Shown here: positions 1-32,265 of the stretch, in pieces
Numbering within the stretch: the stretch's first letter is position 1
Layout: each line of letters opens with the position of its first letter
Assembly (NCBI GenBank): GCA_021811405.1
Contig: JAJZOZ010000011.1
Location: 1-34,627, forward strand
Source of the DNA: a bacterium
GTDB taxonomy: Bacteria; Elusimicrobiota; Elusimicrobia; Elusimicrobiales; UBA9959
Reading direction: 5' to 3'
Length of the DNA: 34,627 bases
Program-made: the position numbers and the translations under genes
Notes under the pieces: model-generated
What the model was told of the DNA's origin: nothing
Databases searched by the model: none
Seen by the model: the letters and a program-made list of their open reading frames with translations, nothing else

Positions 1-83
1 AAGGAGTACTTGCGGGCCCAGTTGACGGCCTCGTCGAGGCGCGTCGTCAGGTAGGAGTGGCCGAACAGCGTCTCTAATCCCAT
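1..83 (-). CDS. nuoB: NADH-quinone oxidoreductase subunit B, N-terminal fragment (runs off window)
   Basis: Reverse complement from ATG at 83 reads MGLETLFGHSYLTTRLDEAVNWARKYS..., NuoB-like, directly downstream of and overlapping nuoA. Confidence 0.8.
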   Translation of the reverse strand, partial: MGLETLFGHSYLTTRLDEAVNWARKYS

Positions 84-427
84 TCCAGGGCTCCTTTCTT
101 CACCGCGTAGACCAGGCCGGCCAGCAGCACGCCGAGGAAGCCGGCCATCGCCCAGAAGGCGGCGGGACCGAGCTGGCGCAGCGAGACGGCCCACGGGTAG
201 AGGAAGACAATCTCCACGTCGAACATCACGAACAGCACGGCCACCAGGTAGAAGTTGACGCGGGCCATGCCGCGCGGTTCCATGGCCGGGGGCATGCCGC
301 ACTCGAAAGGTTCCTGCTTGACGGGGGTGCGCTTCTTCGGCCCGAACAGGGCCGAGAGGACCACCATCCCGCCCGCCACGGCGAGACCGAAACCTGCTGT
401 AAGTAGGATGGCCAGATATTGCCGCAT
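74..427 (-). CDS. nuoA: NADH-quinone oxidoreductase subunit A
   Basis: 117 aa, three TM segments, motif FECGMPP...R..FYLVAVLFVMFDVEIVFLYPWAV typical of NuoA. Confidence 0.95.
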   Translation of the reverse strand: MRQYLAILLTAGFGLAVAGGMVVLSALFGPKKRTPVKQEPFECGMPPAMEPRGMARVNFYLVAVLFVMFDVEIVFLYPWAVSLRQLGPAAFWAMAGFLGVLLAGLVYAVKKGALEWD

Positions 428-434
428 CGTTTAA

Positions 435-440
435 ATTCTA
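435..440 (-). promoter_or_regulatory. -10-like TAGAAT 7 nt upstream of nuoA ATG (putative leaderless promoter)
   Basis: Minus strand TAGAAT-TTAAACG-ATG; no Shine-Dalgarno; -35 weak. Confidence 0.5.
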
Positions 441-537
441 CAAAAATAATCCGGTTTTCTGTAGGCCTTTGCCCGCATTTTTTTACCGCGCCCGATTAGA
501 TGCGCGGGAACGCCTAAAAGTTTCAGCGGAACTTATA

Positions 538-543
538 TATAAT
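538..543 (+). promoter_or_regulatory. -10 TATAAT 8 nt upstream of the ATG at 552 (putative leaderless promoter)
   Basis: acttataTATAATcccttatcATG; no Shine-Dalgarno between. Confidence 0.5.
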
Positions 544-551
544 CCCTTATC

Positions 552-1394
552 ATGAGGATCCTGGTGCTCGGGGGCGGCGGTTTCGTGGGCGGCGCGCTGC
601 TGCGGCGGCTGGCCGGCCACGAGCTGGTGGTCCCTTCGCGCGCTCCGGCGCGGCTGAAGGCGGCCGGCCTGCCGGGCAGTTTCCCCCCGTTCCGCGAGGA
701 CCTGGCCGCGCTGGTGGAGGAAGTCCGGCCCGAGGCCGTGGTGAACCTGCTCGGTATAATAAAGGAAGAGGCGGGCGAGACCTTCGAAAAAGTCCACTTC
801 GAATATACCAGGCGGCTGGCGGCAGGCGCCTCCCGGGCCGGCGTGCGCCGCTTCGTGCAGATGTCGGCCCTCGGGGCCGACCCGGCCTCCCGCTCCCGCT
901 ACCAGGCCAGCAAAGGCCGCGCCGAGGCCTGGCTCGCCTCCTCCGGCCTGGAGCATACCGTCTTCCGGCCTTCGCTGATAACCGGGCCCGGCCAGCGCCT
1001 CTTCGCCGACCTGGCGCGCCTGGCGCGGGTGCTGCCTTTCCTGGCGGCCCCGGCCGACGCCTGGGCCGCGCCGGTGAACGTGGAGGACGTGGCGGACTGT
1101 TTCGCCAAGGCCGTCCTGGAGGGGCTGCCCGCCGGGCTCTACGAGCTGGCCGGAGAGGAGAGGTTGGATTACGCCGAGCTCTTCAGGCGCGGCCTCGCGG
1201 CCGCCGGGGCGCCGCGGCGCCCGGTGATCGGGGTGCCGAAGGCCGTCTTCCTGCCGCTGCTGCCGCTTTTTTCGCTGCTGCCGTCCCCGCCGCTGACGGC
1301 GGACCAGTACAGGATGCTGGCGGCGCCCAACGTGCCGTCGGGCCGCTATCCCGGCGTAGCGGAGATACTCGGCGGGGTCCGTCCCGCCTTCTAG
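552..1394 (+). CDS. NAD(P)-binding epimerase/dehydratase, complex I NDUFA9-like
   Basis: MRILVLGGGGFVGGALLRRL Rossmann motif, extended/atypical SDR; divergent from nuoAB. Confidence 0.85.
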   Translation: MRILVLGGGGFVGGALLRRLAGHELVVPSRAPARLKAAGLPGSFPPFREDLAALVEEVRPEAVVNLLGIIKEEAGETFEKVHFEYTRRLAAGASRAGVRRFVQMSALGADPASRSRYQASKGRAEAWLASSGLEHTVFRPSLITGPGQRLFADLARLARVLPFLAAPADAWAAPVNVEDVADCFAKAVLEGLPAGLYELAGEERLDYAELFRRGLAAAGAPRRPVIGVPKAVFLPLLPLFSLLPSPPLTADQYRMLAAPNVPSGRYPGVAEILGGVRPAF

Positions 1395-5455: not shown

Positions 5456-5956
5456 TCACTTCGAATTCTTTCCGGGCCCCTCGGGGCCTTTCAGCTTGAG
5501 GCCCTTCAGGGCCTCGAACGGGCTGGACTTGTCCGGCCTGCAGCCGCAGGTCTCGCGGTTCCGGTTGGCCCCGCAGGAGGGGCAGCGCCCCTTGCAGGCC
5601 TCCGAACACAGGACCTTTATAGGCGCGAGCAGGGCGGCGGTCTCCCTTATAACTTCGCGCGTATCTATATATTCTAGCGAATCCGGGTAGACCTCGTCAA
5701 AAGAGTCCTCGTACTGCCGGACCACCGGGTCGCCGCAGCGGGAGCATTCCAGCCTCAGTTCGGCGCGGACGCGGCCCTCCAGCAGCACCGAGTCCCCCCC
5801 GACGGAGAAGTCTAGTTCCGCGGACAGCTTCCGGAGGACGTCCGGGGCGCCGAAGACGTCGGCGTAGGCGGCCGGGGAAAGCTCGAGGACGGCGTTGAGG
5901 CCGCCCTGTTCCCTGATGTCGGCGTATTTGAAGACTAACGGGTCGTGTTCCGCCAT
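5456..5956 (-). CDS. YceD/DUF177 family protein
   Basis: LECSRCGDPVVRQYEDSFDEVY...CKGRCPSCGANRNRETCGC, directly upstream of rpmF. Start set at MAEHDPLVFKY; the upstream 18 codons sit over a promoter. Confidence 0.85.
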   Translation of the reverse strand: MAEHDPLVFKYADIREQGGLNAVLELSPAAYADVFGAPDVLRKLSAELDFSVGGDSVLLEGRVRAELRLECSRCGDPVVRQYEDSFDEVYPDSLEYIDTREVIRETAALLAPIKVLCSEACKGRCPSCGANRNRETCGCRPDKSSPFEALKGLKLKGPEGPGKNSK

Positions 5957-5964
5957 AAGATAAC

Positions 5965-5994
5965 AAGATATCAACTATGGGCGGGGCTAGTCAA
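5965..5994 (-). promoter_or_regulatory. Sigma-70-like promoter for yceD-rpmF-plsX...: TTGACT-N18-TATCTT
   Basis: Minus strand TTGACTAGCCCCGCCCATAGTTGATATCTT followed by 8 nt then ATG (5956). Confidence 0.6.
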
Positions 5995-8101: not shown

Positions 8102-10149
8102 CAGCGGCGTCCGCCTCCTACCTTATATAAAGGATAGTAATGGCGCAGGATGTCCCGGTAGGACGCCCCGCGCGCCTTGGCCAGGCCGTAGGCCCCGAGC
8201 AGGCACATGCCGTGCGCGTCGCCGGTGCCGATGCCGCGCAGCAGGAAATAGTCCGGGTACTTGCCGGAGTAGACCGGCCGGATGCTGAAGAGGGTGGAGC
8301 GCAGCGCGCCGGCGCCGAGGGCCTGTTCGATGGCGTCGTCGCCCTCCACCACGGCCGTGCCGGCCGTGCCCTCGAAGCGCACGGCCTTGATGCGGCCGGA
8401 GGGTTCGCGGCCGAGCGGGATCACGGCCCGCAGGTAACCCACCTTGGAGATGCGGTTGACGCGCGACTCTATCCACCGGGGTTTGAGCATCAGAGTCCAG
8501 TAGACGTCGGAAGCGGCGGTCTTGTCCTCGGGCAGGCAGAGCAGGCCGTCCGGCGGGCCCTTGAGCGTGTAGGCGTAGAAGCTGAAAGGCGTCAGCGGAC
8601 GCGGCAGCGGCCGGCCGGCGTCGTCCACGCCCTCCCTGGTGAAGCCGCCGCAGGCGCGGTGGAAATCCGCGGGGGCCGGCGCGCCGCCGGCCACGGTCAG
8701 CATCTCGCCGCGGGTCGCCTTGGCGGCCGCCGCGGAGGCCGAGCTCTCGGCCTGCAGGCCCGCGTACGGCAGGCAGTGCGAGGAATCGCAGAGATCGTAT
8801 TCGCGGCTGCCGTGTCCGGCGGCGCGGGCCAGCCGGGTCAGGCGGGTGCGGACGGCCACGGCTATGGCCTTGAGCTGTTCCGGCATCCTGGAGCCGGAGG
8901 CCTGCTGCGCCGTGACGGGGCTGACCATGGTCTCGAGCGAGGTCTCGTTGATGAGCCACCAGCCCTTGTCCCGGACGAGCGCCGTAAGCTCGCCGGAGAT
9001 CTCCTTGTCGCCGCGGTTGACGCCGTGCGCGCCGGGCAGCTCCGGGTTCTTTATAAGGATGACCCCGCCCTTTACCTTGGGCACTATGCGCAGGGTGTTG
9101 TTGGTGGTGTGGGCGGTGGCGCCCATACTGTCGGTCACCCGGTAGACCCGGTTGAGCTCGTCGTAGGCCAGCGTCCACTGCATGCCGCTGCGGCCCGCTA
9201 AGACCTTGCCCAGCCTGGCGTCCACTATGTCGAAGTCGCAGGCGGCGATGAAACTGAAGCTCTTCACGAGCGACGGCACGCCGTCCCGGCCGGCGTAGAG
9301 GCCCACCTTCACGGCGGGGCCGCTGTCCCGCGGCGGCGCCTCCTTGTGCTCGGGCCAAGCCATGCGGGCCCAGTAGAGCAGGTTGTCGATCTTGCCTTTG
9401 ACGTACTTGCGGAGCTTCTTCTCCTTATCGGCGAAGTCCCGCTCGCCGGGGTCCATGTCGGAGAGGGTGTAGTAGGTCTGCCAGGCCGGTACGAAGAAGC
9501 CCGAGTCCTCGTAGAGCTGCGCGAGGTCGATCTCGGCCTGGATGTTGCGCGGGTCGTAGCCGAGGGCCTCCTTGACGAAGTTGACGGCGTGCGGGCGCTT
9601 CTTGAGGCGCTCGAAGTCGGCGCCGATCAGCTGGGCGGTGGGCGAGAGCAGGTAGGGATAACGGCTGTAGACGGAGCGCAGCTCGGAGATGGCGGCGGCA
9701 GGGCCCCCTAGCTGGGCCTCCGCGATGCCGAGGCCGAAGCGGGCCTGGTTGGCCAGGTCCTGGTCCGCCGTCAGCGTGCCGGCCTTCTCGAAAGCGGCGC
9801 GCGCGTCCTGGAACTTCTCGAGCGAGAGCAGGTTCCAGCCTTTTTCCAGCTGGACGTAGAAGTCCTCCGGGGAGAGCAGCTCCGCCTTCGCCAGGTAGGC
9901 GAGGGCCTCGGCGTTCTTGCCGGCCTCGGCCAGCAGCGCCGCCAGGTCCAGCAGCGCGGCCGAGGTCAGGCCCTGGTCGGAGGAGCGGTAGACCACGTAC
10001 TTCAGCGCGCCGGCGGCGTCCTCGGGGCGGCCGTCCAGCCACTGCGCGGCGGCGTCGGAATAGACCTTGGTCAGGTCTTCCTCCGCCGCGAGCGGGGCGG
10101 CGGCCAGCAGGGCGGCCAGGCACAGCAGCGCGGTCTTGCTCTTTATCAT
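8101..10149 (-). CDS. TPR-repeat protein with C-terminal SpoIID/LytB domain, exported
   Basis: Start trimmed to MIKSKTALLCLAALLAAAPLAAEE (signal peptide); N-terminal TPRs; LKAIAVAVRTRL...HCLPYAGLQAE...ATRGEMLTVAGG...HRACGGFT...GTGDAHGMCLLGAYGLAKARGASYRDILRHYY. Confidence 0.85.
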   Translation of the reverse strand: MIKSKTALLCLAALLAAAPLAAEEDLTKVYSDAAAQWLDGRPEDAAGALKYVVYRSSDQGLTSAALLDLAALLAEAGKNAEALAYLAKAELLSPEDFYVQLEKGWNLLSLEKFQDARAAFEKAGTLTADQDLANQARFGLGIAEAQLGGPAAAISELRSVYSRYPYLLSPTAQLIGADFERLKKRPHAVNFVKEALGYDPRNIQAEIDLAQLYEDSGFFVPAWQTYYTLSDMDPGERDFADKEKKLRKYVKGKIDNLLYWARMAWPEHKEAPPRDSGPAVKVGLYAGRDGVPSLVKSFSFIAACDFDIVDARLGKVLAGRSGMQWTLAYDELNRVYRVTDSMGATAHTTNNTLRIVPKVKGGVILIKNPELPGAHGVNRGDKEISGELTALVRDKGWWLINETSLETMVSPVTAQQASGSRMPEQLKAIAVAVRTRLTRLARAAGHGSREYDLCDSSHCLPYAGLQAESSASAAAAKATRGEMLTVAGGAPAPADFHRACGGFTREGVDDAGRPLPRPLTPFSFYAYTLKGPPDGLLCLPEDKTAASDVYWTLMLKPRWIESRVNRISKVGYLRAVIPLGREPSGRIKAVRFEGTAGTAVVEGDDAIEQALGAGALRSTLFSIRPVYSGKYPDYFLLRGIGTGDAHGMCLLGAYGLAKARGASYRDILRHYYPLYKVGGGRR

Positions 10150-10224
10150 AAGTGACAAAATAGCAATTATCGGAGCGTAAAGGGAATAGCGCGCCCCACG
10201 GCGGAGATATAAGGAAAAAATATT

Positions 10225-22950: not shown

Positions 22951-22978
22951 TTGCGGCGGCCTTAAAATTTGTTAGAAT
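22951..22978 (+). promoter_or_regulatory. Promoter TTGCGG-N16-TAGAAT upstream of ORF 22985 (putative leaderless)
   Basis: -10 at 22973-22978, ATG at 22985; no SD between. Confidence 0.5.
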
Positions 22979-22984
22979 TCATTA

Positions 22985-23221
22985 ATGAAGCTCCGTGACA
23001 TCATCTTCCTGGGCCTGCCGGCCATCGTACTCTGGGTGGCCGGCATTTTCGTGCTCGGGATCTTCCTCATCAAGTGGTTCTGGATGTGGACGATCCCCGC
23101 GCTGTTCCCCAAGGCCGTGGAAGCCGGCTACGTCGCCGGGGTGATCTCCTGGTGGACGGCGCTCAAGCTTTCGGTGCTGGTGGCGCTGCTCGCCGCCATC
23201 ACCAACATCTCCAAGAGCTGA
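22985..23221 (+). CDS. Small two-to-three TM hypothetical membrane protein
   Basis: 78 aa, hydrophobic segments, 17 nt upstream of the SBP gene. Confidence 0.6.
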   Translation: MKLRDIIFLGLPAIVLWVAGIFVLGIFLIKWFWMWTIPALFPKAVEAGYVAGVISWWTALKLSVLVALLAAITNISKS

Positions 23222-30478: not shown

Positions 30479-30609
30479 GTTCTCTCCATTATGCTTGTGG
30501 GGCGCTGTTTACATAATATTATATTACCTAATGCCGGTAGTAGTTAAACTGGGACGGAACGGCGGAATCATTTTGCTAGAATAAGTATGCAGCCGCCCAT
30601 GGAGAGTGT

Positions 30610-32265
30610 ATGTCCTTCTTTTCGCAGCTTTTTTCGCCTCAATCCGCGGCCTGGTCCGTTTTTGTGATCATGCTGGTCGCTTCGTCCGGGCTGGCGCTCG
30701 GGAATATTAAAGTCTTCGGTATTAACCTAGGGATCGCCGGCGTGCTCTTCTCCGGCATCCTGGCGGGGCACGTGGGGCTCGCAATAAACCCGGAGATCAT
30801 GGAGTTCCTGCGGGATTTCGGCCTGATACTCTTCGTTTACTCTATCGGGACCCAGGTCGGGCCAGGTTTTTTTTCCTCCTTCCGTAAACAGGGCATACAA
30901 CTGAACCTGCTGGCCGCCGGCGCGGTGCTGGGCGGCGTCGCCGTCACGCTTGCCGTGGCGAAATTCGCCGGGTTCAACATCGCCACAGCCGTCGGGATGT
31001 ACGCCGGCGCCGTAACCAATACCCCCTCCCTGGCGGCGGCCCAGCAGACCCTTGGCGCGGTGAACCCGGAAGCGGCCAACAGCGCCTCCGTGGGCTACGC
31101 CCTGGCCTATCCGGGCGCTATCCTGGGCATTATCGCGGCCATGCTGCTGATACGCCGCATCTTCAAAGAGCAGGCCGCCCGTGATATGCTCCTGGTCCAT
31201 TCCGACAAGGCGGCCTCGGCGCTTATAAACGCGAGCATCACGGTGGAGAACAAGAACCTGGAGGGCCTGCAGGTAAAGGACATCCCGGCCATAAGCGAGC
31301 TGGGAGTGGTGGTCTCGCGGACTTATCATGCCGGGCTGCTGGGCGTGGCGCACGACGACACCGTCATCCATCTCGGCGACGTTCTGCTTGCCGTGGGGCT
31401 CGCGGAGAATATCCGCAAGTTCACGGTGGTGGTGGGCTCGGGCAGCGGGATGGACCTGAAAAAGATGCCCAGCCGCATAATTCATTCGCGCGTGATAGTC
31501 ACGCATAAGGAAGTAATAGGCAAGACGCTGGAAGAGCTGGGCCTGGAAGCCAGGTATGACGTGCTGGCCACCCGCGTAGCGCGCGCCGACGTGGAATTCC
31601 TGGTGTCGGACACTTATGTGCTCCAGTTCGCGGATAACCTGGTGCTGGTCGGAGAAGAGGCCTCCGTGGCCAAAGCGGCGGAAACGCTCGGCAATTCCCC
31701 TAAGGACCTGAACCACCCGCAGCTTATCCCGGCTTTCATCGGCATAGCCGCCGGAGTATTGCTCGGCACCATTCCTCTCACGATACCCGGCCTTTCGGGG
31801 ACGGTAAAGCTCGGCCTTGCCGGCGGGCCGCTTATCATGGCCATACTCCTTAGCTATGTCCAGCACATCGGTCCGCTCAACTGGTACCTGCCGCCCGCCG
31901 GCAACCTGATGCTGCGCGAGCTGGGGATAGTGCTGTTCCTCTCCTGCGTGGGCCTGAAGGCCGGCGGCAAGTTCTTCGAGACCCTGCTCAACGGCAACGG
32001 GATGTACATCGTGCTCTTCTCTTTCCTGATAACGGTGCTGCCGCTGCTGATAGTGGGCATATTCGCTAAAGCCAGGCTCAAGCTGAACTATGTCTCCCTT
32101 TGCGGCATGCTGGCCGGGTCCATGACCGATCCCCCCGCGCTCGCCTTCGCCAACAGCCTCAGCTCGTCGAACCTCTCGGCCATGTCGTACGCCACGGTCT
32201 ACCCGCTGGTGATGATACTGCGCGTGCTCTCCGCGCAGGTGATGGTGATGCTGGTCCTGAAGTGA
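30610..32265 (+). CDS. AspT/YidE/YbjL-type transporter with two central TrkA-C (RCK_C) domains
   Basis: DFGLILFVYSIGTQVGPGFFSSFRKQG; YAGAVTNTPSLAAAQ; LFLSCVGLKAGGKF; MLAGSMTDPPALAFAN. Confidence 0.9.
   Translation: MSFFSQLFSPQSAAWSVFVIMLVASSGLALGNIKVFGINLGIAGVLFSGILAGHVGLAINPEIMEFLRDFGLILFVYSIGTQVGPGFFSSFRKQGIQLNLLAAGAVLGGVAVTLAVAKFAGFNIATAVGMYAGAVTNTPSLAAAQQTLGAVNPEAANSASVGYALAYPGAILGIIAAMLLIRRIFKEQAARDMLLVHSDKAASALINASITVENKNLEGLQVKDIPAISELGVVVSRTYHAGLLGVAHDDTVIHLGDVLLAVGLAENIRKFTVVVGSGSGMDLKKMPSRIIHSRVIVTHKEVIGKTLEELGLEARYDVLATRVARADVEFLVSDTYVLQFADNLVLVGEEASVAKAAETLGNSPKDLNHPQLIPAFIGIAAGVLLGTIPLTIPGLSGTVKLGLAGGPLIMAILLSYVQHIGPLNWYLPPAGNLMLRELGIVLFLSCVGLKAGGKFFETLLNGNGMYIVLFSFLITVLPLLIVGIFAKARLKLNYVSLCGMLAGSMTDPPALAFANSLSSSNLSAMSYATVYPLVMILRVLSAQVMVMLVLK

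What the first reader, a model, noticed from the sequence alone, without database searches (positions are those of the whole stretch)
425..554. Divergent nuoA / epimerase pair: both genes appear leaderless
On the minus strand TAGAAT ends 7 nt before the nuoA ATG (427). On the plus strand TATAAT ends 8 nt before the epimerase ATG (552). With a normal -10 to +1 spacing of about 6-8 nt, both transcripts would start at or within about 2 nt of the A of ATG. Neither has a Shine-Dalgarno, unlike other genes here (tig gagagg, clpP tggagg, ferredoxin ggaggt). The spliced pattern recurs in this window (5956, 22985, perhaps 10149). The -35 boxes are weak for this pair.
Basis: partly seen in the sequence, partly recalled or inferred. 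Interest (0 to 1): 0.6.

Follow-up and report, generated by a model that had tools for sequence, protein, structure and literature searches.

The report
Leaderless genes in Elusimicrobia bacteria
Two back-to-back genes in this uncultured Elusimicrobia bacterium have their promoter box so close to the start codon that the mRNA almost certainly begins at, or within a few bases of, the start codon; this is a known way of expressing genes, but here it turns out to be a regular habit of the whole class Elusimicrobia and apparently not of its sister classes.

Summary
TAGAAT lies 7 nt before the nuoA ATG (427, minus strand), TATAAT lies 8 nt before the ATG of the divergent gene (552, plus strand), and neither gene has a Shine-Dalgarno (SD) sequence.

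It is not chance. In a 0.8-Mb sample of the same genome, with gene starts called blind to upstream sequence, TANAAT peaks at -12, where a -10 box belongs if transcription starts at the A of ATG. The -14..-10 window holds 21 sites among 222 first genes (shuffled mean 2.3); 0 of 21 have an SD, against 96 of 201 other first genes. The excess recurs in three other genomes of the class and is absent from E. coli.

Across the phylum, TATAAT-N6-ATG exceeds TATAAT-N16-ATG in 108 of 115 tabulated genomes of the class and 6 of 42 outside it. In relatives the two -10 boxes are the conserved parts of this intergenic region.

Best reading: leaderless or near-leaderless mRNAs from a -10 promoter abutting the ORF, coexisting with SD-led genes. 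The kind is well known (Deinococcus-Thermus, Actinobacteria); I found no report for Elusimicrobia. The double divergent arrangement is no more frequent than independence predicts. No transcript data were available; the TSS is inferred.

The parts
74..427 (-). nuoA (complex I chain 3), SD-less; start codon ATG at 427
   Evidence: Pfam PF00507 E 8.7e-35; start conserved at the same residue in orthologues
435..440 (-). -10 box TAGAAT of nuoA, 7 nt from the ATG; predicted TSS at 428 (G) or 427 (A of ATG)
   Evidence: sequence; conserved as TARAAT-N7 in most orthologues of the genus
538..543 (+). -10 box TATAAT of the divergent SDR gene, 8 nt from the ATG; predicted TSS at 549 (A) or 552 (A of ATG)
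   Evidence: sequence; conserved in L039 (N8), L040 (N6) and, as TAGAAT-N7, in G115
552..1394 (+). SDR/epimerase-like gene, NDUFA9-like, SD-less
   Evidence: Pfam PF01370 E 7.4e-12; PDB 9g83_P E 2.7e-36 and complex I 39-kDa/NDUFA9 chains
22973..22978 (+). -10 box TAGAAT, 6 nt before the ATG at 22985 of a 78-aa hydrophobic ORF, no SD
5965..5970 (-). -10-like TATCTT (first T at -14) of the YceD-family gene starting at 5956, TTGACT 18 nt upstream, no SD
10157..10162 (-). weaker -10-like TATTTT (first T at -13) before the possible start at 10149; start uncertain
30577..30604 (+). contrast, leadered gene at 30610: TAGAAT at -33 (30577-30582) and SD GGAG at -9 (30601-30604)

Best explanation
Both genes are transcribed by the housekeeping RNA polymerase from promoters whose -10 box abuts the ORF, so the mRNAs start at the A of ATG or within about 3 nt of it. 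They are translated without an SD, by recognition of a 5'-terminal AUG (70S or IF2-loaded ribosome). This is one of two parallel initiation modes in the class Elusimicrobia. Shown: the hexamers, the absence of SDs, the genome-wide -12 peak and its mutual exclusion with SD, conservation in relatives, and the class-wide distribution. Inferred: the TSS positions, the sigma factor and the ribosomal pathway.
For: Sequence. TANAAT peak at -12 in 222 first genes: 12 against 0.43 in shuffles; 21 against 2.3 in -14..-10; 0/21 with SD against 96/201, Fisher 3.3e-6. Unbiased hexamer ranking finds SD words and TATAAT/TAGAAT near -12; extended -10 TGN in 32% against 6% shuffled. Replicated in G034, G190 and G111. 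E. coli control has no site in the window. N6 exceeds N16 in 108/115 tabulated class genomes and 6/42 outside. Orthologues keep the -10 next to the ATG, and these boxes are the conserved ends of the intergenic region.
Against: No transcript or proteome data. This pair's spacers (N7, N8) are slightly longer than the modal N6. nuoA orthologues outside the genus have N9 to N16, compatible with a short leader. The start calls are computational. The MAG is 6.5% contaminated.
Confidence: 0.87

Rival explanations
1. Leadered genes: the real promoters lie farther upstream, and the A/T-rich hexamer near the ATG is an unstructured or S1-binding translational enhancer, or chance.
For: A/T-rich, SD-less initiation regions exist in other bacteria (non-SD groups, PMC9581028); no TSS is mapped here.
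Against: The signal is the specific -10 word at a fixed phase with extended -10 bases, not general A/T-richness. No better sigma-70 promoter was found in 300..700. Conservation is confined to the hexamers.
Confidence: 0.08
2. Short-leader, SD-less mRNAs (about 1-10 nt of 5' UTR) rather than strictly leaderless ones.
For: Spacers N7 and N8 here, and N9-N16 in distant nuoA orthologues. A purine at 549 could be the SDR start site, giving a 3-nt leader.
Against: The genome-wide mode is exactly N6, and N7 is kept in most of the genus for nuoA.
Confidence: 0.3
3. The divergent pair is a dedicated coupled regulatory unit (co-regulated leaderless pair or shared bidirectional promoter).
For: nuoA and the NDUFA9-like SDR gene stay divergent in at least two genera (g1 and g6), SD-less on both sides; the SDR resembles a complex I subunit.
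Against: Both-leaderless divergent pairs occur at about the independence rate: 2 against 1.39 here, 2 against 0.76 in G190, 1 against 1.41 in G034. The two -10 boxes are about 100 bp apart. In other members of the genus the SDR gene has no near -10.
Confidence: 0.1

Closest known systems
-10-adjacent leaderless genes of Deinococcus-Thermus (PMC12340547; Zheng et al. 2011, PMC3160421)
   Same: A -10 motif a few bp upstream of the ORF, no SD, weak dependence on a -35, a sizeable minority of genes
   Different: Other phylum; here the share is about 11-20% in f1 and f2 and about 40% in f7 of divergent genes, and TATAAT/TAGAAT with TGN is the usual word. TSSs not measured.
Leaderless genes of Actinobacteria (Mycobacterium, Streptomyces; PMC3160421, PMC9581028)
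   Same: High-GC genomes in which a TA-like signal about 12 bp upstream coexists with SD-led genes
   Different: No experimental TSSs here; other lineage
Pseudo-symmetric bidirectional promoters (PMC10268837, PMC12825309)
   Same: Locus L021:9483-9510 shares one palindromic ATTATATAAT as the -10 of two divergent genes
   Different: The nuoA/SDR pair has two separate -10 boxes about 100 bp apart, so it is not of this type

Membership tests
Bacterial leaderless (TA-led) genes sensu Zheng et al. 2011 | TANNNT/TATAAT-like signal about 12 bp upstream of the start codon | tested here: met
   First T at -13 (nuoA) and -14 (SDR); genome-wide mode -12
Bacterial leaderless (TA-led) genes sensu Zheng et al. 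2011 | No Shine-Dalgarno upstream | tested here: met
   None within 18 nt for the pair; 0/21 in the genome set
Bacterial leaderless (TA-led) genes sensu Zheng et al. 2011 | More such genes than in dinucleotide-shuffled upstream sequences | tested here: met
   21 against mean 2.27, maximum 8 of 300 shuffles
Leaderless mRNA (experimental definition) | 5' end of the mRNA at the start codon | not testable with these tools
   No RNA data at hand
Leaderless mRNA (experimental definition) | Translated from the 5'-terminal AUG | not testable with these tools
   No ribosome profiling or N-terminal data at hand
Pseudo-symmetric bidirectional promoter | Overlapping -10 elements on the two strands | tested here: not met
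   -10 boxes at 435-440 and 538-543; met instead at L021:9483-9510

The most novel reading that the evidence does not exclude
Class Elusimicrobia is a further bacterial lineage in which leaderless transcription is a standing second mode of gene expression (about 11-20% of divergently transcribed genes in f1 and f2, about 40% in family f7). The trait switches at the class boundary within one phylum, so the class and its sister classes form a natural comparison for how leaderless usage evolves.
Probability: 0.6. Interest if true: 0.5.

Novelty: new member of a known kind. Interest (0 to 1): 0.36.

Why it matters
Leaderless genes affect start-site annotation, antibiotic response and views on early translation. 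This is sequence-level evidence that a poorly cultured class uses them widely while its sister classes in the same phylum appear not to. A genome that by its size looks like the cultured Elusimicrobium minutum shows the signal, so the claim can be tested directly by TSS mapping.

Tried and rejected
(1) That the divergent pair is special: rejected, double-leaderless pairs occur at the independence rate. (2) An RNA element in the enlarged L040 intergenic region: no Rfam match in L039, L040 or L021. (3) 16S 3' end of this MAG: no 16S gene found. (7) An artefact of A/T-richness or of the gene caller: rejected by the unbiased hexamer ranking and the E. coli control.

Full report
Identity. The window is contig C62 of a 2.83-Mb metagenome-assembled genome (88% complete, 6.5% contaminated) of the class Elusimicrobia. 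The class is inferred from the closest named relatives of the divergent gene, Elusimicrobia bacterium GWA2_61_42 (71% identity) and CG1_02_56_21 (62%).

Observation. Searches confirm TAGAAT-N7-ATG for nuoA (minus strand, ATG at 427) and TATAAT-N8-ATG for the SDR gene (plus strand, ATG at 552). Neither has an SD. No -35/-10 pair passes a 9/12 sigma-70 test in 300..700. In the same window, some SD-bearing genes have their -10-like boxes farther away (10620: TATACT at -23; 30610: TAGAAT at -33).

Genome-wide test. I sampled 0.8 Mb of the genome and called genes by dicodon score without looking upstream. In 222 first genes TANAAT peaks at first T = -12, the canonical position if +1 is the A of ATG: 12 sites against 0.43 in dinucleotide shuffles. 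In -14..-10 there are 21 against 2.3 (maximum 8 of 300 shuffles). None of the 21 has an SD, against 96 of the 201 remaining first genes (Fisher 3.3e-6). An unbiased ranking of hexamers at -14..-11 returns, at the top, SD words and TATAAT/TAGAAT. Pooled over the four genomes, the hexamers carry an extended -10 TGN in 32% against 6% after shuffling; -35 agreement is only slightly above shuffled. The E. coli K-12 control (250 kb, 110 first genes) has no site in -14..-10, although SDs are found and 28 of 34 annotated starts checked are recovered exactly.

Replication. The excess in -14..-10 recurs in G034 (19 against 5.1), G190 (12 against 0.6) and, in a small sample, G111 (5 against 0.5). The mode is -12 in G034 and G190 and -13 in G111. 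G034 is a single contig of 1,643,562 bp, which from memory is the size of the E. minutum Pei191 chromosome. By excess over background in divergently transcribed genes, the leaderless fraction is about 11-12% in this genome, 11-20% in G034 and about 38-40% in G190 with the looser TANNNT-type words (12% with TANAAT alone).

Distribution. TATAAT-N6-ATG was compared with TATAAT-N16-ATG in 248 Elusimicrobiota genomes; 157 of these rows were tabulated by hand. N6 exceeds N16 in 108 of 115 tabulated genomes of the class and 6 of 42 of other classes. The rows left out are mostly further members of f2 and f12. Genomes of one genus are not independent, so the p-values overstate the evidence and the family tallies are the fairer view: ten of the eleven class families have a summed N6/N16 ratio above 1 (f4 is the exception), and none of the 14 outside families does. 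Some of these families are represented by one genome.

Conservation of this pair. nuoA orthologues in the genus keep TARAAT at N7 (this genome; L039; L040/L123; the second copy on C90; G111; G121), with N9 in G057. Members of other genera of the family have N9 (G028) and N11-12 (G087, G115); a member of another family has N16 (G061). The SDR gene has TATAAT-N8 in L039, TATAAT-N6 in L040 and TAGAAT-N7 in G115. In the three-way alignment of the intergenic region the two -10 boxes are the conserved ends and most of the middle has diverged. The predicted leader is thus 0 to a few nt within the genus and perhaps up to 10 nt, still SD-less, farther out.

Is the pair special? No. Two of 52 divergent pairs in this genome sample have both sides leaderless, against 1.4 expected. 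The other one is notable: at L021:9483-9510 two genes lie 26 nt apart and share a palindromic ATTATATAAT as -10 for both strands.

Mechanism. Shown: promoter word, phase, mutual exclusion with SD, conservation, taxonomic distribution. Inferred: housekeeping sigma, transcription starting at or next to the ATG, translation by recognition of a 5'-terminal AUG. The class is reported with a normal anti-SD (PMC10783764), and SD-led genes are common here, so both modes coexist.

Prior knowledge. TA-like signals about 12 bp upstream as a mark of leaderless bacterial genes, their high use in Deinococcus-Thermus and Actinobacteria, and the -10 adjacent to the ORF are published (PMC3160421, PMC12340547). 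[quoted passage not shown] A full-text search found no paper linking leaderless genes to Elusimicrobia, but supplements were not readable, and E. minutum may be listed in one. Verdict: a true, well-supported instance of a known kind in a lineage where I found no prior report.

Noticed in passing
L021:9483-9510 (G000:C3): Two divergent genes (polyprenyl synthetase and cation efflux) are only 26 nt apart and share a palindromic ATTATATAAT, giving TATAAT on both strands next to both ATGs: a candidate symmetric bidirectional promoter making two leaderless mRNAs.
   Followed up: partly
window:552-1394: The 'epimerase' is closest in the PDB to an NAD-dependent epimerase/dehydratase (9g83 chain P, E 2.7e-36) and to NDUFA9/39-kDa complex I subunits. 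Its divergent position beside the nuo operon suggests a bacterial complex I accessory protein.
   Followed up: partly
G190 (family f7): This 69% GC relative has TANNNT-type words at -14..-10 in excess in about 40% of divergently transcribed genes, against about 12% in the window's genome.
   Followed up: partly
G000:C90 (L091) and G000:C62: The MAG holds a second nuoA 83% identical to the window's and a third more distant one; with 6.5% contamination, C90 may come from a related strain. The second copy also has TAGAAT-N7-ATG.
   Followed up: no
L040:2804-3000: The nuoA/SDR intergenic region is 197 bp in CG1_02_56_21 against 120-124 bp in the two others, with a GC-rich insert that matches no Rfam family.
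   Followed up: partly
window:22985-23221: A 78-aa hydrophobic ORF with TAGAAT-N6-ATG and no Pfam match; too short for my gene caller.
   Followed up: no
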